A stretch of 34,258 nucleotides of DNA from Hyphomonadaceae bacterium (lineage in GTDB: Bacteria; Pseudomonadota; Alphaproteobacteria; Caulobacterales; Aquidulcibacteraceae), in NCBI GenBank assembly GCA_022843225.1, contig JALHOC010000024.1, forward strand, positions 1 through 34,258, given 5' to 3'. The translations under genes and the position numbers were made by a program. The stretch's first letter is position 1; each line of letters opens with the position of its first letter. Shown here piece after piece: positions 84-16,820 of the stretch. The notes beneath the pieces are model-generated. The model saw only the letters and a program-made list of their open reading frames with translations. It did not search any database and was not told the origin of the DNA.

Positions 84-425
84 ATGTGGGAAGAAGACGA
101 GCGGGAGGCTGACGCCGCCGCAGCCCTGTTGGCCGCGAGCGTTGCCGGCTTTGCCTTGGGGGTTGCGGCCGACGATATCGCCAGTCGGGAGCGAGGGTCG
201 GCCGATGTGGCGTTCGCCCGGCAGGTCGCGATGTATCTGTGCCATGTAGGCTTCGAACTGAGCTTAGCGCGCGTGGCGCTGGCGTTCCGCCGCGACCGAT
301 CCACCGTGGCGCATGCATGTCACGCGATGGAAGATCGGCGCGACGATCAAAAATTCGACCTTTGGATCGCCTCGCTTGAAGCGATGCTCCGGCGCGCGCC
401 GCCACAGCGCATGGTCGGCACATGA
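84..425 (+). CDS. Stand-alone DnaA domain IV-like DNA-binding protein
   Basis: The 113-residue protein resembles only the C-terminal DnaA-box-binding domain of the replication initiator DnaA; there is no AAA+ ATPase region. Residues 43-52 (AFARQVAMYL) match the DnaA segment containing the box-contacting arginine (R46 here). Residues 69-80 (RRDRSTVAHACH) match the DnaA signature, normally RDHSTV-HA, with R72 in place of the signature histidine. By homology it should bind DnaA-box-like DNA or act as a local transcription factor; that is inference. Two purine-rich stretches (AGGGAGG and GGAGG) precede the ATG. Its stop overlaps the next gene's start by 4 bp (ATGA), so the two are probably translationally coupled. 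The domain assignment is fairly secure; the function is unknown. Confidence 0.8.
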   Translation: MWEEDEREADAAAALLAASVAGFALGVAADDIASRERGSADVAFARQVAMYLCHVGFELSLARVALAFRRDRSTVAHACHAMEDRRDDQKFDLWIASLEAMLRRAPPQRMVGT

Positions 426-1159
426 TCGACGAGATACGCTCGCTCACCAGGCTTGCAAGCGCCGGCGCCTGCTTGCTCCCGCAGCGCAGGGGCAGCGACT
501 ACGCCGTGTTCGCCAAGGGAGATCGCCGCCGCCGCCCACTCGCCAAGCTCGGCAAGACAGACGTGCGGCGGCTTGAGTCCGAAGGCGTGATCGAGGCGCG
601 CGCGGAGGGCTTTGTCCTAAGTCGTGCTGGGCGGGCCCGGCTCAAGCGCGCGATTGCGGCGCCCGGAGAGGCGTACGCGGCTCAGCAGGGTTCGCTGGTG
701 GATCGCGCCGTGGTGACGCGCGGCGGCGCCATGCGTAGCGCGCGGGGCTACGACTCGAACGCGACGCTGCGGCGGCTTTCGAAATTGACGGACACGGACG
801 GCTCGCCGTGGCTGAGCGCGGACGAACTTGGCGCGGCAACGCGTTTGCGCGACGATTGGGAGTTCGGCGAGATCGGCCTCATGCGTGGCTCGGATTGGAC
901 AGCGCCACCTCTGGGCTCAAGCGCGCGCGGGGGCAATGCGCGCGAGAATTTGATCACCGCGCAATGCGATGCGCGACGCCGCGCGGCGGAGGCGCTGGAT
1001 CAACTCGCTCCGGCGCTGCGGCGCGTCGTGGAGCGCGTCTGCCTTTACGATGAAGGTTTGGAGGCGCTGGAACGCGCCAATAATTGGCCGGCGCGCTCGG
1101 CGAAACTCGCGCTCAAGCTGGGTCTCGCCCAGATCGCGCTGAACCGATCAGCCCGGTAG
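422..1159 (+). CDS. DUF6456 domain protein, helix-turn-helix-like
   Basis: The protein has 245 residues. The N-terminal ~80 residues look like a winged-helix unit ending in a basic stretch (LSRAGRARLKR). The C-terminal half, from about residue 115 (NATLRRLSKLTDTDGSPWL), fits the alphaproteobacterial DUF6456 family: a W-L-S-x-x-E-L-x-A-A-x-R-L-R-D-D-W core, a conserved LMRGSDWTAPP-like segment, and a final part resembling sigma-region-4-like helices (LERANNWPARSAKLALKLGL). It starts inside the stop of the DnaA domain-IV gene, so both are expected to come from one transcript. It ends convergently with sufE, overlapping it by 12 bp. The role is not established; DNA binding together with its partner is a reasonable inference. 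Confidence 0.75.
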   Translation: MIDEIRSLTRLASAGACLLPQRRGSDYAVFAKGDRRRRPLAKLGKTDVRRLESEGVIEARAEGFVLSRAGRARLKRAIAAPGEAYAAQQGSLVDRAVVTRGGAMRSARGYDSNATLRRLSKLTDTDGSPWLSADELGAATRLRDDWEFGEIGLMRGSDWTAPPLGSSARGGNARENLITAQCDARRRAAEALDQLAPALRRVVERVCLYDEGLEALERANNWPARSAKLALKLGLAQIALNRSAR

Positions 1160-4896: not shown

Positions 4897-5238
4897 ATGG
4901 CCGAGCTGAAAACCGATTTTTGGGCGAGCGCGCTCATCCGCCGCGCCGAAATCGCGGGCGCGTTCGCGGGCGTCGTGCGCAAGGGCGATTCCGACGCAGG
5001 CGCGGTTTTGGTGAAGGTAGCGACGCTCGACGGTCGCGCGCGGCTCTATGCGCCGGCGCGGCGGGGGGAGGAGGGTGCGCGGGTGTGGGTTGATCTATCC
5101 GCCGGGTCGTTGGGCGACGAGGAGCGCGCGGTCGACGCTTATGCGCGCCGCCAGGCTGAGTTCGATCCCGACATCTGGGTGGTGGAGATTGAAGATAAAA
5201 AGGGCCGGCATTTTTTAGAAGAACCGGTGGATGGGTAA
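4897..5238 (+). CDS. DUF1491 family protein
   Basis: The 113-residue cytoplasmic protein fits the DUF1491 family found widely in alphaproteobacteria. It opens with a variant of the family's LKTDFW-x-x-AL-x-RR start and carries the typical GDSDAGAVLVKV segment near residues 33-44. It ends in the FDPDIWVVEIEDKKGRHFLEEP pattern. The length is normal for the family. An ATG preceded by GAGG is used; a GTG 13 bp upstream is in a different frame. No biochemical role is known for the family. It is divergent from the secreted protein at 4000-4845 and stands at the edge of the accessory stretch that follows. Confidence 0.85.
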   Translation: MAELKTDFWASALIRRAEIAGAFAGVVRKGDSDAGAVLVKVATLDGRARLYAPARRGEEGARVWVDLSAGSLGDEERAVDAYARRQAEFDPDIWVVEIEDKKGRHFLEEPVDG

Positions 5239-5349
5239 GTAACGCCCTCGCAAGTCAGCCACTGGGGGGCGCAATGAAAGAGCGGGTGAAACTCGCCGAT
5301 TAGGGACTTTCCTGAAAACATTGCGGGCTTGCGATGCGTTTTCGACGCG

Positions 5350-5820
5350 CTACACGCTTCCACACAGTTCGATGAACTGCCCCGACTGAAATCTCGCTCC
5401 CAGCAGGTGATCGTCATCCCATGCGGCGGCGTACACCAGTTCAGTCGTTACAACTCCGCCCAGCCTCATCACGGTGACAGACTGCAGCGATACCTGGGCC
5501 CAAACTTGATCGGGCGTCTGGATAAGAGGCTTCGTTGAATCTTTTGCGGACGGGTCATCCGCCGCAGCTGCTTCGGCGTAGGGTGCATGGTGCTCAAAGA
5601 GCGCCTGCTGGATCAATGGCCGCCAGGCGGCCAACGAAGGAGCGATCTGGCGTGCTGTCGCCAAGGCTTCGGCGTCAGGCTCGCGATTTGATCCGAATAG
5701 AGTCAAGGGCGTTCGCGTCGCGTCGCTAATCGTCAATGTGCCCCGCCAGAGCCCACCCGAGCGCTCCAGCCGACCAAGGACGGAATCGTGAAAGGCTGGG
5801 TTTTTGAAAAGGCCTGCCAT
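5350..5820 (-). CDS. Unrecognised cytoplasmic protein
   Basis: The gene encodes about 156 residues from the ATG at 5820; an upstream in-frame start at 5853 would add 11 residues. The beginning (MAGLFKNPAFHDSVLGRLERSGGLWRG) looks like a folded N-terminus and continues as alternating strands (TLTISDATRTPLTLFG). A helix with ALATARQIAPSLAAW follows, then a low-complexity Ala/Asp linker, then a strand-rich end. This organisation resembles small uncharacterised proteins of the DUF6985/immunity-like kind, but I cannot assign it. There is no signal peptide or membrane segment. It lies on the same strand as, and downstream of, the GFA gene and the putative zinc-finger relic, so a common transcript is possible. 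Confidence 0.55.
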   Translation of the reverse strand: MAGLFKNPAFHDSVLGRLERSGGLWRGTLTISDATRTPLTLFGSNREPDAEALATARQIAPSLAAWRPLIQQALFEHHAPYAEAAAADDPSAKDSTKPLIQTPDQVWAQVSLQSVTVMRLGGVVTTELVYAAAWDDDHLLGARFQSGQFIELCGSV

Positions 5821-5889
5821 GAATCCACTCTCGCCGCTCAAAGCCACCGGCACTCTGGCGAAGTTCGCCCAACTCGGCCAGAGGCGCGC

Positions 5890-6023
5890 CTAGAGGGCAG
5901 CCGCAGATGGCGCGCAAACGGCGAGGTGGGCCATTAATGCTTGAACGCCGGTCTGGGCCTTCCCTTACGAACGGCGACCACGACCCATTCGTGACATTGA
6001 TCGCAAACCACCGGCTTCGGCAC
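5890..6023 (-). pseudogene. Possible frameshifted mini zinc-finger gene
   Basis: Just downstream of the GFA stop, a GTG-started frame reads MPKPVVCDQCHEWVVVAVRKG and then hits an early stop. Moving to the neighbouring frame near 5961-5965 continues sensibly as AQTGVQALMAHLAVCA and ends at a TAG at 5890. Joined by one missing base, the product would be ~44 residues with a C-x2-C ... H-x3-C zinc-ligand pattern. The base loss falls in the run GGGAAGG, so either a real pseudogene or a sequencing error would explain it. There is no strong ribosome site. I recognise no named family. The reconstruction depends on the frameshift and is therefore tentative. Confidence 0.3.
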
Positions 6024-6042
6024 AATTCGCCGGAAACCGACT

Positions 6043-6441
6043 CTAAGGCCGACCTTGCGGGAAACGTTCAAGCGCCGTTGGGATCATCACCCACTGGTGC
6101 CTGCTTTGCTCCCAAACGGACCTTATCGGCGCCATCGCGTGATCGTCTGAGATTGCTCCGATGGCGACCCCTGTCACGCCGACGTTCTTTGAGCCGCGAA
6201 AGAAAACCGTCGATCCGCAATTTGGGCAAAAGAAGCTCTCGAAATCGCCGCCAAGCGCGGTCTTTCGGACATAACGCTTAGAGACGCCCTCAGCGAGAAT
6301 CTGATCGTCGGGGTAGTAAGCCGCGACGCCGAACGGCGAGCCGGTTCGGCGCTGACAAGCCACGCAATGGCAGGCCACGACAGCGGACGTGGGCTCTGGC
6401 AAACGCACCTTCAGCTGACCGCATTGGCAAGTCGCTTCCAT
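6043..6441 (-). CDS. GFA / CENP-V family zinc-binding protein
   Basis: The gene encodes 132 residues from the ATG at 6441, which has a GAGGA ribosome site lying at the end of the upstream membrane-protein gene. The fold family is the glutathione-dependent formaldehyde-activating enzyme group. The zinc ligands are visible: C-x-C at residues 5-7 (CQCGQ), C24/C26/C29 in ACHCVACQ, and C72/C75 in FCPNCGS. The segment RTGSPFGVAAYYP is also characteristic. Substrates of most family members are unknown, and despite the name many do not act on formaldehyde. It follows the ferric-reductase-like gene by ~8 bp and is almost certainly co-transcribed with it under the TetR regulator. Confidence 0.88.
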   Translation of the reverse strand: MEATCQCGQLKVRLPEPTSAVVACHCVACQRRTGSPFGVAAYYPDDQILAEGVSKRYVRKTALGGDFESFFCPNCGSTVFFRGSKNVGVTGVAIGAISDDHAMAPIRSVWEQSRHQWVMIPTALERFPQGRP

Positions 6442-11027: not shown

Positions 11028-11042
11028 TTAACAAACGCTTAC
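11028..11042. promoter_or_regulatory. CtrA-like box (TTAA-N7-TTAC)
   Basis: TTAA-CAAACGC-TTAC matches seven of eight fixed positions of the CtrA consensus. It straddles the stop codon of the penicillin-binding protein gene and lies ~95 bp upstream of the DUF2336 start. Paired boxes of this type are common at CtrA-controlled promoters. Confidence 0.4.
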
Positions 11043-13048
11043 TGGAAGATTTCAGGTAGCACCGGAAAGTTATCAGGATCACCGAACGCATCCGCGAGTT
11101 CATCGAAAAAGCTCGCCGTCTCGACTTGGCGCGGCGTGTAGCTGGGTTGCTCGATGCCGGGCAAGGGATGTTTTTCCATGTCGCGATGGGCTGCCCGCAT
11201 CGTATCCGCCCAGATTTGCGCTGGCAGCGTGCCGCCCGTCGTTCTTCCCATGGAGGTGAAGTCGTCATGGCCGACCCAAACGCCGGCGGTGAAGTCTGCG
11301 GTGTAGCCGACGAACCAGGCGTCGCGCCAATCTGAGCTCGTGCCGGTCTTGCCGGCTACATCACGATCAAGGCGCGCCGCCGTCCCGGTGCCACGGATAA
11401 CCACCGCGCCCATCATGGATGTCATGCGTCGCGCCACTTCTTGGTCAAGCACTCGCTGGGGATCGGCGGCGGGGCGAACATAGAGCTCTTGGCCTGCAGC
11501 GTTCGTGACCCGGCGCACCATGTATGCGTCGACGCGAAGGCCGTCATTCATGTAAGCGGCGAAGGCGGAGGTCATGTCCCAGAGATTGGTTTCGATCGAA
11601 CCAAGCGCGATCGACGGGGGTACGAATTCATTTCGCTCCGGCATCGAGCGAACGCCAAGCCTGCGCGCGACATCTGCGACCCGCCGGGGTCCGACTTCGT
11701 TCGCCACTTCCGCCGCCACGGTGTTGATCGAACGCGCGAACGCCGTACGCAGCGTCACCGCACCCTCGTACCCCTCATCGTAGTTGCGCGGCCGCCAGCC
11801 ATCGATGACGATCGGCTCGTCATAGCGTACGTCCTCGGTGTCGAGGCCGGACTCAATCGCCGCCGTGTACACGAAGGTCTTGAACGTCGAGCCCGGCTGC
11901 CGTTGGGCTTGGGTAACTCGGTTGAACTTGGATGTCTGGTAATCGGTGCCGCCGACGAGCGCACGGATGCCGCCTTCGCGGTCAACGGCCATGAGCGAGG
12001 CTTGCAAAGGGCGTCGTCCAAAGGCGCGGTTGCCAAGCCGCCGCCGCACCGAACTCGACGCCGCTTCCTGCACCGCGCGATCAACCGTCATCTCGATGAC
12101 GAGGTCGGGCGCGCCTTCGCCGACGACGTCGCGCGCTTGCTCGACCGCGAGATCGAAGGCGTAGCCCATGGTGCGCTCGACGCTGGGCGGGCGCGCGATA
12201 CGGATGCGCTCGGCGCGGGCTTCGTCGCGTTGTTCCGCGGTGATGAAGCCGGCGTCGACCATGGCGTCCAGCACCACAAGCTGGCGCTCAATCGCGCGCT
12301 CGAGATGGCGCGTGGGCGCATAATCGGACGGCGCCTTGGGAAGTCCCGCCAGCAGAGCTGCTTCCGCGAGCGTCAGTTCTGTCGCGGGCTTGCCAAAGAA
12401 GCGACGCGCGGCGGCGTCCACGCCGTAAGCCTGATCGCCCAGATAGACCCGATTCAAATAGAGTTCGAGTATCTCGTCCTTGGAGAGCCGGCGCTCAATG
12501 CGTGAGGCGAGCACCATTTCGCGGAGCTTGCGGTTCACCGTCTGCGTTCGGGTCAGAAAGAGATTGCGTGCGAGCTGCTGGGAGATCGTCGAGCCGCCCT
12601 GCACGGTTTCGCCCGCTTCGAGGTTCGCGAGAACGGCGCGCAAGACTGCCATCCGGTCAACGCCTTCATGCTGATAAAAGCGTCGGTCTTCGATGGCGAG
12701 GAAAGCTTGCGGCACATATTCAGGCAGATCGGCCAGAAGCGCGCGCCGGCCATAATACGCGCCCCGCACGCCAAGGATGTCGCCGCTGCGATCGACGAAC
12801 ATAATCGAAGGCTGGCGATTGAGCGCCCACAACGCTTCGGCGTCCGGCACGCGCGGCAGGCCCCAATAAATCCAGACCCAGACCGAGAACACTGCAAGCA
12901 ACACAAGACCGGCGGTAATGCTTGCCGCGCGTTGCCACGTGAGGCGCGCGCGCTGACGCAGGATCTGCGACAGCTGCTCCTGTGCTGCAGCAGCGCGCAG
13001 CTTGGCCCAATCGACGCCACGCTGAAAATTCGGCCGGTTGTCTGACAA
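11039..13048 (-). CDS. Class A penicillin-binding protein (glycosyltransferase/transpeptidase)
   Basis: A bifunctional peptidoglycan synthase anchored in the inner membrane. It has 669 residues: a short cytoplasmic tail, one TM helix (43-62), a GT51 domain with catalytic glutamate E120 in AIEDRRFYQHEG and the GGSTISQQLARN motif at 151-162, then a transpeptidase domain with SxxK at S387-K390 (PGSTFK), SxN at 440-442 and KTG at 567-569. It is shorter than E. coli PBP1a, with no large inserted domain. No ATG fits the N-terminus: the start is a TTG (13046-13048) with a GGAGA ribosome site at good spacing. The start and the upstream hairpin at 13109-13129 may tune expression. The gene ends ~100 bp before the DUF2336 gene. 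Confidence 0.93.
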   Translation of the reverse strand: MSDNRPNFQRGVDWAKLRAAAAQEQLSQILRQRARLTWQRAASITAGLVLLAVFSVWVWIYWGLPRVPDAEALWALNRQPSIMFVDRSGDILGVRGAYYGRRALLADLPEYVPQAFLAIEDRRFYQHEGVDRMAVLRAVLANLEAGETVQGGSTISQQLARNLFLTRTQTVNRKLREMVLASRIERRLSKDEILELYLNRVYLGDQAYGVDAAARRFFGKPATELTLAEAALLAGLPKAPSDYAPTRHLERAIERQLVVLDAMVDAGFITAEQRDEARAERIRIARPPSVERTMGYAFDLAVEQARDVVGEGAPDLVIEMTVDRAVQEAASSSVRRRLGNRAFGRRPLQASLMAVDREGGIRALVGGTDYQTSKFNRVTQAQRQPGSTFKTFVYTAAIESGLDTEDVRYDEPIVIDGWRPRNYDEGYEGAVTLRTAFARSINTVAAEVANEVGPRRVADVARRLGVRSMPERNEFVPPSIALGSIETNLWDMTSAFAAYMNDGLRVDAYMVRRVTNAAGQELYVRPAADPQRVLDQEVARRMTSMMGAVVIRGTGTAARLDRDVAGKTGTSSDWRDAWFVGYTADFTAGVWVGHDDFTSMGRTTGGTLPAQIWADTMRAAHRDMEKHPLPGIEQPSYTPRQVETASFFDELADAFGDPDNFPVLPEIFQ

Positions 13049-13129: not shown

Positions 13130-13203
13130 ATGCCGAAAATCACCAAAGCCCTTGAGTCGCTTGAGCTCTGCAAAAATCAATCCGACCGAGACGGACCGGG
13201 CGT

Positions 13204-13410
13204 ATGCTCCAGGCACGGTCGAGAAATCAGCTTGAACAAGGAGCAGGGGCGCTGACTCGCATCGAAACAATCAAAGCGGCGCTGGAAGATCAGATGTGCG
13301 GCTTCAGCGCGGCGAAGTTTAAGGAAAGCCCAGACCGTGTGGACGCTTTGGTCTGGGCGTTGACGGACTCGCGCATGGGCGGCGCGCAGCCGCCCATGCG
13401 GATACTTTAG
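13204..13410 (+). pseudogene. C-terminal stub of GTA large terminase (g2-like)
   Basis: The last ~42 residues, from LEDQMCGF (about 13282) to the stop, match the end of GTA-type large terminases. The hallmark is SPDRVDALVWALTD, the terminal helix of the nuclease domain. A complete TerL is over 400 residues, so the ATPase and nearly all of the nuclease are gone. The 26 residues before the match look unrelated, so the deletion join probably lies near 13280. The 68-residue frame has an ATG at 13204 and could be translated, but it cannot be a functional packaging enzyme. The stop is 12 bases before the portal gene, the normal GTA order. Confidence 0.8.
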
Positions 13411-13422
13411 CGGAAAGATTTC

Positions 13423-14577
13423 ATGCTGGATTGGTTGCGAAACCTCGGCGCCTGGCGCGCCGAGCGAAAACTCATGGCTTGGTACACGCCCGGGCGCCCG
13501 GTTTGGTCGCAACGCGACCCCGCCGTGTTCGCGCGCGAAGGCTACGCCAAGAACGCGGTCGCGTATCGGTGTGTGCGAATGATCGCCGAAGCCGCTGCCA
13601 GCGCGCCGCTTCGGGTCGGGCCAGACGATCACCCGCTGGCGCGTTTGCTGGCGCGGCCAAACCCGGAGCAGACCGGCATCGAATTGCTGGAAGCCTTCTT
13701 CGGACACCTGCACGTCGCGGGCAACGCGTTCTTGGAAGCGGCGCAGTTCGATGACGCGCCGCCGTCCGAACTCTACGTGCTGCGCCCCGACCGGATGAGC
13801 GTCATTCCCGGCGCTGACGGCTGGCCCGTGGGATGGGAGCATCGCGTGGGCGCGCAGGTGCGTCGGTTCGATCGCGATCCAGTCAGCGGCGAAGCGCCCA
13901 TTCTTCATCTCAAGCTCTTCAACCCGAGCGACGATTGGTACGGGCTATCGCCGATGGAAGCGGCGGCGTTTTCCATCGACATCCACAATGCCGGCGGCGC
14001 GTGGAACAAGGCTTTGATCGACAATGCCGCTCGGCCCTCGGGCGCGCTGGTGTTCACAGGCGCGGGCGGCGCCGATCGTTTGAGCGAGGAGCGATTCCGT
14101 AGACTCAAGCAGGAATTGGAAGACATGCATGTCGGTGCCGCCAATGCGGGGCGCCCGATGTTGCTGGAGGGCGGTTTGGAATGGCGGCCGATGTCGCTGT
14201 CGCCGTCCGATATGGATTTCATAGAAGCGCGTTATTCAGCGGCGCGCGACATCGCGCTGGCGTTCGGCGTGCCGCCGATGTTGCTCGGTATACCGGGCGA
14301 CAACACTTATTCGAATTATCGCGAAGCCAACCTCGCGTTCTGGCGGCAAACCGCGCTGCCGCTGGGGCAGAAAGCCGCGCGCTGCATCGAGGCATGGCTC
14401 GGCGATCGCTGGAAAGACGTCGGCCCGGCCGCAGTCAGTGTTGACATGGATGCCGTGCCCGCGCTCGCGGTTGAGCGGGAAGCGCTGTGGGCGCGCGTCG
14501 CCGCAGCGGACTTTCTAAGCGAGGATGAAAAGCGACGCATGGCGGGTGTCGATGCGCCCGAGCGTGCCGATCCATGA
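13423..14577 (+). CDS. GTA portal protein (HK97 family, g3-like)
   Basis: The portal forms the dodecameric ring through which DNA enters a phage-like head. The 384 residues are full length for the GTA/HK97 portal family. Visible features are the N-terminal EGYAKNAVAYRCVRMIAEA, ARPNPEQTG, VAGNAFLEA, YVLRPDRMSVIPG and the segment GLSPMEAAAFSIDIHN. Also present are the stem/crown part RPSGALVF with LSEERFRRLK, and the conserved IALAFGVPPMLLGIPGDNTYSNY motif. The ATG has a GGAAAG ribosome site. The stop overlaps the next start by 4 bp (ATGA). The frame is open throughout although terminase and capsid are gone; whether it is expressed is unknown. Confidence 0.93.
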   Translation: MLDWLRNLGAWRAERKLMAWYTPGRPVWSQRDPAVFAREGYAKNAVAYRCVRMIAEAAASAPLRVGPDDHPLARLLARPNPEQTGIELLEAFFGHLHVAGNAFLEAAQFDDAPPSELYVLRPDRMSVIPGADGWPVGWEHRVGAQVRRFDRDPVSGEAPILHLKLFNPSDDWYGLSPMEAAAFSIDIHNAGGAWNKALIDNAARPSGALVFTGAGGADRLSEERFRRLKQELEDMHVGAANAGRPMLLEGGLEWRPMSLSPSDMDFIEARYSAARDIALAFGVPPMLLGIPGDNTYSNYREANLAFWRQTALPLGQKAARCIEAWLGDRWKDVGPAAVSVDMDAVPALAVEREALWARVAAADFLSEDEKRRMAGVDAPERADP

Positions 14578-14795
14578 AGTTCGATCCGCGCGTGACCTAT
14601 GCGCTGATCCTGGCGCTGTTGCTGCAAGCGGCGGGCGGGCTCCTGTGGGCAGGGCGCGCCGCAGCGCGCCTTGATGAACTCGAACGCGCCGTCGCCACGC
14701 AGCCCGAAGTGGCGGAACGTTTGGCGCGTCTTGAGGAGCAGTTGGGCGAGGCGCGCCGTTCGCTCGCGCGCGTCGAGGCGCGACTGGATCGATGA
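14574..14795 (+). CDS. GTA g3.5-like small membrane/coiled-coil protein
   Basis: The 73-residue protein has one TM helix (residues 9-27, TYALILALLLQAAGGLLW) and then a predicted coiled coil rich in E, R and L (LDELERAV ... VEARLDR). Its place between portal and protease, with ATGA overlaps on both sides, is that of the small g3.5 gene of RcGTA-type clusters. The role of g3.5 is poorly defined. The assignment rests on position, size and architecture more than on sequence identity. Confidence 0.7.
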   Translation: MKFDPRVTYALILALLLQAAGGLLWAGRAAARLDELERAVATQPEVAERLARLEEQLGEARRSLARVEARLDR

Positions 14796-15208
14796 TCATC
14801 CAAGGCTACGCCGCACTGTTCGGCTTGGCGGATCAAATGGGCGACGTGGTGCGCGCGGGCGCGTTCGGCGCAAGCCTGAAGCGCCGTGCCGAGCTTTTGC
14901 CGATGTTGGTGGAGCATGAGCGCCGCTTGATTGCCGGCGCGTGGAGCGACGCGATTGAGGATGCGCGCGGTCTGTTCTTACGTGGCGAGATCCGCGCCGA
15001 TCAGCCCGGCGCAGCCCGCGCCAAGAGGCTCATCGCGCGCGGAATTGATGGGCTGTCGATTGGGTTCGTCCCGGTCGTAACGCGCCGAACGCCAAGCGGG
15101 CGGGTGCTTGAAGAGATCGACCTTCTGGAAGTGTCCATCGTGACGCATCCGATGCAGCCGCAAGCGCGGCTGACCCTTGCGCGAGAGGTCATCCGCGCTG
15201 TTGCCTGA
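14792..15208 (+). CDS. GTA prohead protease (HK97 family, g4-like)
   Basis: The 138-residue HK97-type prohead protease normally matures the capsid by removing its N-terminal delta region. Family features are the IIQGYAALFGLADQMGDVVRAGAF opening, the catalytic histidine H42 in LVEHER, the catalytic serine S89 in DGLSIGF, and the final LLEVSIVTHPMQPQA. Its substrate, the g5-like major capsid protein that should follow at once, is absent. Instead, homology to the tail protein g15 begins directly after the TGA and in the same reading frame. The catalytic residues are intact, so the enzyme may still fold, but no cognate substrate is encoded here. Confidence 0.9.
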   Translation: MIIQGYAALFGLADQMGDVVRAGAFGASLKRRAELLPMLVEHERRLIAGAWSDAIEDARGLFLRGEIRADQPGAARAKRLIARGIDGLSIGFVPVVTRRTPSGRVLEEIDLLEVSIVTHPMQPQARLTLAREVIRAVA

Positions 15209-15835
15209 GGAGAAAAGTGTGAAGAATGGGAGATCGTGCAGGCGCGCGAGTGCACTTTAGTTGGGCCTAACGAGTACGAGCTGTCTGGATTTCTGCGCGG
15301 TCGTCTCGGGTCAGCGCATGCGATGCGTGCGCCGCATCCTGTTGGCGCGCGGATCGTCAAGCTCGACGAGCGCTTGGCGCGCATGACGATCAATGTGCAC
15401 CACTGGCAGGAGCCGCTCCCGGTTGCCGTGCCGCCCGCCAATGCACCCATGACGGACGCGCGCGCTGCGTTTGCCAGTATCATACTGCCGCGCGCCCACG
15501 CGCGGCAGTGGGCGCCCGCGCACCTGCAAGCTAAGCGCCAGCCCAACGGCGATGTCGCCATCAGCTGGGTGCGCTGCGCGCGAAGCGGCGGCGATTCCTG
15601 GGGACCCGGCGAGCCGCCGATCGGGGCGCCGAGCGAAGCTTACCAACTCGACATCCTCGACGCTGCAGGCGCTTTAAAACGCACGGCCACTCTCAACAGC
15701 CCCAGCTTCACCTATACTTCGGCGCTTCAAAGCGCGGATTTCGGTGCGTTGCCCGCTTCGTTGCGGTTCCAGGTCGCTCAAATCGGGGCTAACGGCGCCA
15801 CAGGGTTGAACAGCGCGTTAACTATAACATTATAG
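15209..15835 (+). pseudogene. C-terminal fragment of GTA tail/host-specificity protein (g15-like)
   Basis: The frame is open from the codon after the protease stop. Homology to the end of the GTA g15 'megatron' baseplate/host-specificity protein starts at about EEWEIVQARECTLVG and continues through YELSGFLRGRLGSAHAMR. Later come WAPAHLQAKRQPNGDVAISW, the degenerate WVRCARSGGDSWG, SEAYQLDIL and a final FRFQVAQIGANG-type strand. Only ~200 of more than 1,000 expected residues remain. The first usable start is GTG 15236. GAGGAG before it probably belonged to the lost capsid gene. The junction marks loss of g5 to g14 and most of g15. Confidence 0.82.
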
Positions 15836-15911: not shown

Positions 15912-16820
15912 TTGAGTTGGGATCCCTATACCGCCCTCGGCGTAAGCCGATCCGCCACCGCCGACGATATTCGTCGCGCGTACCGGACGCTTGCCAAGGA
16001 ATTGCATCCCGATGTGCGCCCCGGCGACAAGGGCTCCGAAGATCGCTTCAAGCGCGCTACCGCAGCGTTTAATCTCCTTTCTGACCCTGTCACCAAAGGC
16101 CGCTTCGATCGCGGCGAGATCGACGCCGACGGCAATGAGCGCGCGGCGTTCGCGGGCGCACGGCCAAGACAACGCGCCCATGCCGGCGCTGGCGCGGGGC
16201 CTAGCGGCGGCTTTGGGCCGCAAGCCGAGCCGTTCGACCTGGGCGATATCTTCTCGGATTTGTTCGGCAGCGGCGTTGGCGGCGGTCGCACCTATTCGCG
16301 CATGCGCGGGCGCGATATTCGCTTCACGCTTGAGGTCGATTTCCTCGATGCGATCAACGGCGCCAAGCGCAGAATCTCGATTTCAGAAGGGCGCACGCTC
16401 GATGTTGCGATCCCGCCGGGGGTTGAGAGCGGGCAGGTGTTGCGGCTCAAGAACCAAGGCGGCGCGGGCGTTCAAGGCGGGCCAGCCGGCGATGCGCTGG
16501 TGGAGCTCAAGGTGCGGCCGCATCCGTTCTTTCGTCGTGAGGGCCAGGACATTCACGTCGATATCAATGTCTCGCTGACCGAGGCCGTCGATGGCGCGCG
16601 CATCCAGGCCCCCACGCCGAGCGGCCCGGTGACGCTCACCATTCCAGCGGGCTCGAACACGGGCAAGGTGCTACGGCTAAAGGGCAAGGGTGTAGGCGGG
16701 ACGGGCGACCAATTCGTTCGCCTGCTCGTTGTATTGCCTGAGACCGCCGACGAAGACCTGCGAAAGTTCGTGAAGAAATGGCCCAAGCGGGACTATGTTC
16801 CGCCCCGACCGGCTGGGTAA
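15912..16820 (+). CDS. Class B J-domain co-chaperone (CbpA/DnaJ-like)
   Basis: The 302-residue Hsp40 stimulates DnaK ATPase and binds unfolded protein in the cytoplasm. The J domain at residues 4-66 includes the obligatory HPD (32-34, ELHPDV). A glycine/phenylalanine-rich linker (AGAGPSGGFGPQ ... DIFSDLFGSG) follows. There is no cysteine zinc finger, placing it in class B. Two beta-sandwich substrate-binding domains complete it (ISISEGRTLDVAIPPG; GPVTLTIPAGSNTGKVLRLKGKG). No ATG fits: a TTG at 15912 with GGAG seven bases upstream gives MSWDPYTALGV. It lies just after the GTA remnant with 76 bp between, so this side of the deletion did not damage it. Confidence 0.92.
   Translation: MSWDPYTALGVSRSATADDIRRAYRTLAKELHPDVRPGDKGSEDRFKRATAAFNLLSDPVTKGRFDRGEIDADGNERAAFAGARPRQRAHAGAGAGPSGGFGPQAEPFDLGDIFSDLFGSGVGGGRTYSRMRGRDIRFTLEVDFLDAINGAKRRISISEGRTLDVAIPPGVESGQVLRLKNQGGAGVQGGPAGDALVELKVRPHPFFRREGQDIHVDINVSLTEAVDGARIQAPTPSGPVTLTIPAGSNTGKVLRLKGKGVGGTGDQFVRLLVVLPETADEDLRKFVKKWPKRDYVPPRPAG

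What the first reader, a model, noticed from the sequence alone, without database searches (positions are those of the whole stretch)
13204..15835. GTA relic in which portal, g3.5-like and protease genes stay intact while everything around them is gone
Order and homology match an RcGTA-type cluster (terminase, portal, g3.5, protease ... g15). The terminase is cut to its last ~42 residues, and g5-g14 plus most of g15 are missing. The three remaining genes have full-length frames, key residues (portal AFGVPPMLLG motif, protease H42/S89) and two exact ATGA overlaps. Either the decay is recent or this block is kept under selection for something other than particles.
Basis: partly seen in the sequence, partly recalled or inferred. 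Interest (0 to 1): 0.75.

Follow-up and report, generated by a model that had tools for sequence, protein, structure and literature searches.

The report
Recently truncated gene transfer agent cluster
This bacterium carries the broken remains of a gene cluster that once built DNA-carrying, virus-like particles; three genes are still whole, most likely only because the breakage is recent, and many relatives have broken the same cluster in their own ways.

Summary
Window 13,277-15,835 is an RcGTA-type cluster reduced by two deletions to the last ~43 codons of the terminase, intact portal, g3.5 and protease genes, and the last ~203 codons of g15. Its promoter (13,175-13,221) and, 12 kb away, the activators gafY and gafZ are intact. 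Complete clusters occupy the same site, between a PBP gene and a dnaJ gene, in relatives. Capsid gene g5 and g13 have no match anywhere in the genome. The 68-aa ORF at 13,204 starts inside the promoter and is not a gene.

On this genome's branch the three genes have omega 0.072 (95% 0.050-0.102) against 0.095 elsewhere; at most ~0.7% of the branch can be neutral. Recent decay explains this without a new function. Other truncated clusters keep different genes, so no portal-protease module is preferentially saved.

The wider pattern is more interesting: at least 8-9 separate losses in one genus; three relatives with the same in-frame portal::g15 fusion joined at the same codon, unexplained; and a stand-alone second GTA-type terminase.

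The parts
84..425 (+). gafY homologue (DnaA-type helix-turn-helix), start chosen by eye at ATG 84; overlaps gafZ by ATGA
   Evidence: PF08299 2.3e-14; 55-77% identical to the ORF next to gafZ in relatives; sequence
422..1159 (+). gafZ homologue (DUF6456), 245 aa, intact
   Evidence: PF20057 7.3e-29; no stop; omega 0.111 against 0.130
11039..13048 (-). penicillin-binding-protein-like gene, left flank of the GTA site
   Evidence: flanks the cluster in relatives; name by resemblance of the sequence, not searched in a family library
13175..13221 (+). conserved two-block motif upstream of g1, presumed GTA promoter
   Evidence: AATCAATCCGACCG + GGCACGGTCG, starts 37 bases apart, in G000 and most intact clusters
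13277..13410 (+). g2 (terminase large subunit) 3' end, about 43 codons
   Evidence: deletion junction between about 13243 and 13277
13423..14577 (+). g3 portal, full length
14574..14795 (+). g3.5-like gene, full length
14792..15208 (+). g4 prohead protease, full length
15209..15221 (+). ribosome site and start codon of g5 (GTG 15219), now opening 13 codons out of frame with g15
15224..15835 (+). g15 (megatron) 3' end, about 203 codons; junction at 15222-15226
   Evidence: NF048004 1105-1298
15912..16820 (+). dnaJ-like gene, right flank of the GTA site
   Evidence: flanks the cluster in relatives

Best explanation
A young non-producer (deletion) allele of a vertically inherited RcGTA-type cluster. 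Shown: two deletions, one taking g1 and most of g2, the other g5 to most of g15; presumed promoter and the activators gafYZ intact; no g5 or g13 elsewhere in the genome. Inferred: when gafYZ are expressed the promoter would now make only portal, g3.5 and protease; without terminase in place, major capsid and tail no particle forms, and the cell probably escapes the lysis that ends GTA production. The three genes are whole because too little time has passed to break them. The same locus has been lost many times in this genus, as expected of recurrent non-producer ('cheater') alleles.
For: Complete clusters at the same site in nine relatives on one contig. Omega of the block on the G000 branch 0.072, neutral share at most 0.7% of a branch of dS about 0.75. 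No stop or frameshift in 1,794 bases bounds the neutral age at 0.055 substitutions per site without indels, 0.016 with 0.1 indels per substitution. Promoter block and gafYZ intact. At least 8-9 separate losses in the genus, label not clustered on the tree. Other truncated clusters keep other genes. GTA loss and a cheater reading are already proposed in PMC10883770 (passages); death after gafYZ overexpression in Caulobacter depends on the GTA (PMC9632790, passages).
Against: The deletions would have to fall in about the last 1% of a long branch, in this and in several other lineages: the g15 ends of six truncated clusters jointly show omega 0.157 (0.125-0.198) against 0.205, no sign of relaxation (clusters with broken tails were left out of that test, which biases it to young ones). 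Eight of twelve truncated clusters still have an unbroken g15 end, more than long neutral decay would leave. No strain-level data show that the allele is young.
Confidence: 0.76

Rival explanations
1. The portal-g3.5-protease block is kept under selection, expressed from the GTA promoter, for a role other than making particles.
For: Low omega and intact frames and overlaps; promoter and activators kept; the two deletions leave promoter and block as a compact operon; remnants in other lineages are also unrelaxed, the portal half of the three fusions more constrained than background (0.051 against 0.097), mostly through G029.
Against: Branch omega averages over the time before the deletion; the dead tails of the same locus are not significantly relaxed either. 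Whole g3 and g4 occur in only three of twelve truncated clusters (G000, G002, G020).
Confidence: 0.12
2. Assembly artefact: the draft assembly joined across an intact or variable cluster.
For: Draft of 117 contigs; in relatives G001 and G011 the truncated loci contain runs of N.
Against: One contig spans both junctions and both flanks; g5 and g13 are missing from a genome called 99.5% complete; single-contig relatives G020, G023 and G027 also hold truncated clusters.
Confidence: 0.06
3. Remnant of an ordinary HK97-type prophage, not of a GTA.
For: Portal and protease belong to broad phage families.
Against: g15 fragment matches the GTA megatron model; complete RcGTA-type clusters at the same site in relatives; GTA promoter block and gafYZ present.
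Confidence: 0.02

Closest known systems
RcGTA / Caulobacter CcGTA head-tail cluster
   Same: Gene order terminase-portal-g3.5-protease ... g15; upstream promoter block; GafY/GafZ homologues
   Different: g1, most of g2, g5-g14 and most of g15 are missing; cannot build a particle
'Small RcGTA-like elements' (PMC7947584, passages) and pseudogenised GTA clusters (PMC10883770, passages)
   Same: Few RcGTA genes left; repeated loss across alphaproteobacteria, proposed to be cheater lineages
   Different: Here deletion ends, promoter, activators and intact sister clusters are resolved at one fixed site within one genus

Membership tests
RcGTA-type gene transfer agent (functional) | near-complete head-tail cluster (14 of 17 genes in PMC10883770) | tested here: not met
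   three whole genes and two fragments
RcGTA-type gene transfer agent (functional) | major capsid protein | tested here: not met
   no g5 match in the whole genome; 15 of 30 genus genomes match in the same search
RcGTA-type gene transfer agent (functional) | activators gafY/gafZ | tested here: met
   window 84-1159
RcGTA-type gene transfer agent (functional) | particles that transfer host DNA | not testable with these tools
   needs culture
Decayed RcGTA-type cluster | GTA genes at the ancestral site with an intact counterpart in relatives | tested here: met
   PBP|GTA|dnaJ in nine relatives on one contig
Co-opted functional operon | constraint continuing after the deletions | tested here: inconclusive
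   branch omega cannot separate before from after; tail controls are compatible with zero neutral time

The most novel reading that the evidence does not exclude
Truncated GTA clusters in this genus are not all dead: particular remnants (the three-gene operon here, the recurrent portal::megatron fusion in three relatives) are kept under the GTA promoter as functional proteins, for example as interfering forms that let non-producers block particle assembly or avoid GTA-triggered death.
Probability: 0.08. Interest if true: 0.8.

Novelty: new member of a known kind. Interest (0 to 1): 0.48.

Why it matters
Why bacteria keep gene transfer agents, which cost the producing cell its life, is an open question. 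In this genus about half of the genomes still have the capsid gene (15 of 30) while twelve carry truncated clusters, often with promoter and activators still in place. That is a natural experiment on GTA loss. If the deletion alleles prove young everywhere, non-producers arise often and do not last, which would be evidence that lineages without GTAs are at a disadvantage.

Tried and rejected
Horizontal spread of the portal::g15 fusion among G001, G008 and G029: the well-supported placements put the G008 portal half with G017/G022 (94%) and the G029 g15 half with G004/G007 (100%); the other halves are weakly placed (G001 with G019 40-49%; G008 g15 half with G015 60%; G029 portal half with G007 23%). 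AU test: one origin rejected for the g15 half (p 0.003), not for the portal half (p 0.086). Identity in windows near the junction gave no clear signal and synonymous sites are near saturation.

An intact copy of this species' cluster among viral contigs: none seen. The portal scan gave 6 loci, the three nearest 83-85% identical; the protease scan kept 80 of 91, of which one, at 74%, is near.

The exact fusion elsewhere in the order: among printed rows only G001, G008 and G029 match over the whole fusion, of 299 genomes searched; the row list was cut.

Link between gafZ breakage and cluster loss: 2 informative pairs only, no test possible.

Structure prediction and fold search were not used.

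Rows left out before counts: the loss count scored 24 genomes (12 intact, including outgroup G030, in which g1 was not detected; 12 truncated). G012, G013, G015, G016 and G028 were on the tree but unscored (contig ends, or frameshifts that could be sequencing error); G003 and G006 had no g15 match. Codon models left out G030 and sequences with stops or under 85% coverage; PBP, DnaJ and gafZ runs hold 11-14 taxa. The g15-tail joint test holds six truncated genomes (G000, G001, G004, G008, G020, G029); G011, G016, G018, G023 and G027 have broken or partial tails and were left out. The codon model is my own script (one omega per branch class, F3x4, topology fixed from four flanking genes, profile intervals from short optimisations).

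Full report
WHAT IS THERE. The window is the whole contig C24 of a 2.86-Mb draft genome (117 contigs, 99.5% complete). Named relatives fetched by portal similarity carry titles such as Hyphomonadaceae, Caulobacteraceae and Caulobacterales. Between a penicillin-binding-protein-like gene (11039-13048, minus) and a dnaJ-like gene (15912-16820, plus) lie the portal (13423-14577), a 73-aa g3.5-like gene (14574-14795) and a prohead protease (14792-15208), all full length with exact ATGA overlaps. Pfam, PHROGs and NCBIfam confirm portal and protease; the next fragment matches positions 1105-1298 of the 1299-position GTA megatron model. The 73-aa protein has no convincing family match, but the syntenic ORF is 68-85% identical in 15 relatives of the genus and 49% in G030.

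CORRECTION TO THE LEFT EDGE. The pattern, with up to 3 and 2 mismatches and starts 36-37 bases apart, was found in 12 of the 14 genomes G005, G007, G009, G010, G012, G014, G015, G017, G019, G021, G022, G024, G025 and G030 that hold a complete or nearly complete left end (not in G005 and G030), and in 8 of 12 truncated ones (G000, G001, G004, G008, G011, G020, G027, G029; not in G002, G018, G023, G026). It lies where the GTA promoter should be; in Caulobacter that promoter carries IHF, GafY and GafZ elements (PMC11150451, passages and one section read). That this block is the promoter is inference. Homology to g2 starts near 13277, so the block now sits about 250 bases upstream of the portal. 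On the right, the protease stop, the ribosome site and the g5 start codon (GTG 15219) remain and join g15 at 15222-15226; the g5 start now opens only 13 codons, out of frame with g15.

WHAT IT CAME FROM. In nine relatives of the genus (G005, G007, G009, G010, G017, G019, G021, G022, G025) the same site holds g1-g15 on one contig (the dnaJ gene is cut by the contig end in G017); G014 and G024 hold them over two contigs. In G000 the capsid gene g5 and g13 have no match anywhere; g1, g6-g12 and g14 were not searched genome-wide. Of 20 genus genomes at least 90% complete and at most 5% contaminated, 12 match g5, one of them (G020) only with its first 255 residues; the other 8, G000 among them, have no match. 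The g15 end is found in 28 of 30.

REGULATORS. The window also holds gafZ (DUF6456, 422-1159) and gafY (84-425, DnaA-type helix-turn-helix). DUF6456 is found in 25 of 30 genus genomes, 24 over the curated cut-off; of 14 control genomes only Caulobacter vibrioides has it. Among the twelve truncated genomes gafZ is open in nine (G000, G001, G002, G004, G008, G011, G020, G026, G029) and incomplete or broken in G018, G023 and G027. GafY and GafZ activate the Caulobacter cluster, and the lethality of their overexpression there depends on the GTA (PMC9632790, passages).

SELECTION. I wrote a codon-model script with a separate omega for the G000 end branch. Block g3+g3.5+g4, 15 genomes, 590 codons: 0.072 on the G000 branch, 0.095 elsewhere; equality not rejected (2dlnL 2.4), omega 1 rejected (2dlnL 176). 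The 95% interval, 0.050-0.102, allows at most 0.7% of the branch to be neutral. The branch is long (dS about 0.75), so low omega mostly describes the time when the cluster was whole. The dead tails of the same locus (g15 end plus g2 end, 240 codons) give 0.254 (0.151-0.423) against 0.178: relaxed in direction, not significantly, and compatible with no neutral time. They therefore cannot show that the block outlived its neighbours by selection. Intact frames over 1,794 bases bound the neutral age at 0.055 substitutions per site without indels, 0.016 with 0.1 indels per substitution. Controls on the same branch: PBP 0.050 against 0.075, DnaJ 0.078 against 0.058; gafZ 0.111 against 0.130.

NOT A SPECIAL MODULE. 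Other truncated clusters keep other parts: G001 and G029 keep g1, g2 (interrupted by a scaffold gap in G001), half a portal and the g15 end; G008 half a portal and the g15 end; G004 only promoter block and g15 end; G020 g1-g4, part of g5 and most of g15; G026 the end of g11 to g15; G002 everything but g1-g2, over two contigs; G011, G018, G023 and G027 scraps. Whole g3 and g4 occur in three of the twelve.

REPEATED LOSS. On a tree of four flanking genes the intact/truncated label (24 genomes scored) needs 9 changes, 8 forced by well-supported branches, and is no more clustered than shuffled labels (418 of 500 shuffles as low). Eleven of the twelve truncated loci have both flanking genes on one contig. 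Co-evolution work already reports pseudogenisation and loss in several alphaproteobacterial lineages and suggests cheaters (PMC10883770, passages); 'small RcGTA-like elements' are defined in PMC7947584 (passages). In the listings of my paper searches and the passages read I saw no paper that maps such losses within a genus or describes the fusion below; the library lacks most subscription journals.

AN UNEXPLAINED RECURRENCE. G001, G008 and G029 each carry one open frame of 426-427 aa made of portal residues 1-186 joined in frame to g15 residue 1053 to the end, at the same codon, with TCGA shared by the two parents. The well-supported placements differ: the G008 portal half with G017/G022 (94%), the G029 g15 half with G004/G007 (100%); the remaining halves are weakly placed. 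One origin is rejected for the g15 half (AU p 0.003) but not for the portal half (p 0.086). Three intact relatives offer 279,000-336,000 pairs of 4-base matches between g1-g14 and g15, so three independent identical joins by chance are very unlikely; hotspot, selection or an undetected shared history remain. The halves are not relaxed: portal half 0.051 against 0.097, driven mostly by G029 (0.034), g15 half 0.163 against 0.175. G018 also joins portal to g15 in frame, at other residues. G083, of another genus, joins portal to g15 near residue 1094, out of frame.

MECHANISM. Shown: two deletions, intact promoter block and activators, no g5 or g13 in the genome. Inferred: no particle, probably no GTA-linked lysis, hence a non-producer allele. 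Recurrent loss and the young look of most remnants fit alleles that arise often and do not last. The number of unbroken remnants would also fit retention: six unbroken g15 ends jointly show 0.157 (0.125-0.198) against 0.205, though clusters with broken tails were left out of that test. I leave about one chance in eight to retention here.

Noticed in passing
L048 13707-14987 (-), L047 5069-6352, L046 5000-6283 (genomes G008, G001, G029): The same in-frame portal(1-186)::g15(1053-end) fusion ORF, 426-427 aa, joined at the same codon in three relatives whose well-supported halves group with different intact relatives.
   Followed up: partly
L256 2-1381 (G000:C26:191-1378) and L257-L265, L268: A stand-alone GTA-type large terminase, 52-55% identical to GTA g2, in 11 of 30 genus genomes (a fragment in G010), with a helix-turn-helix-like N-terminal extension in the complete ORFs and, by eye, intact ATPase and nuclease motifs; in the fetched flanks no other GTA gene matched at E 1e-3 apart from two 34-residue g10.1-like hits.
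   Followed up: partly
L045 (G015) 4966-6090 and L130: G015 has the whole gene set, but portal and gafZ are frameshifted; point decay or long-read error cannot be told apart.
   Followed up: no
L167 5458-6906 (G083, another genus of the family): Truncated cluster with the portal (to about residue 320) joined out of frame to g15 near residue 1094, close to the g15 breakpoint of the window; g1 and g2 gone.
   Followed up: partly
L047 and L095 (G001 and G011): Two sister genomes with synonymous divergence of about 0.3 in flanking genes carry different truncated structures, but both loci contain scaffold gaps.
   Followed up: no
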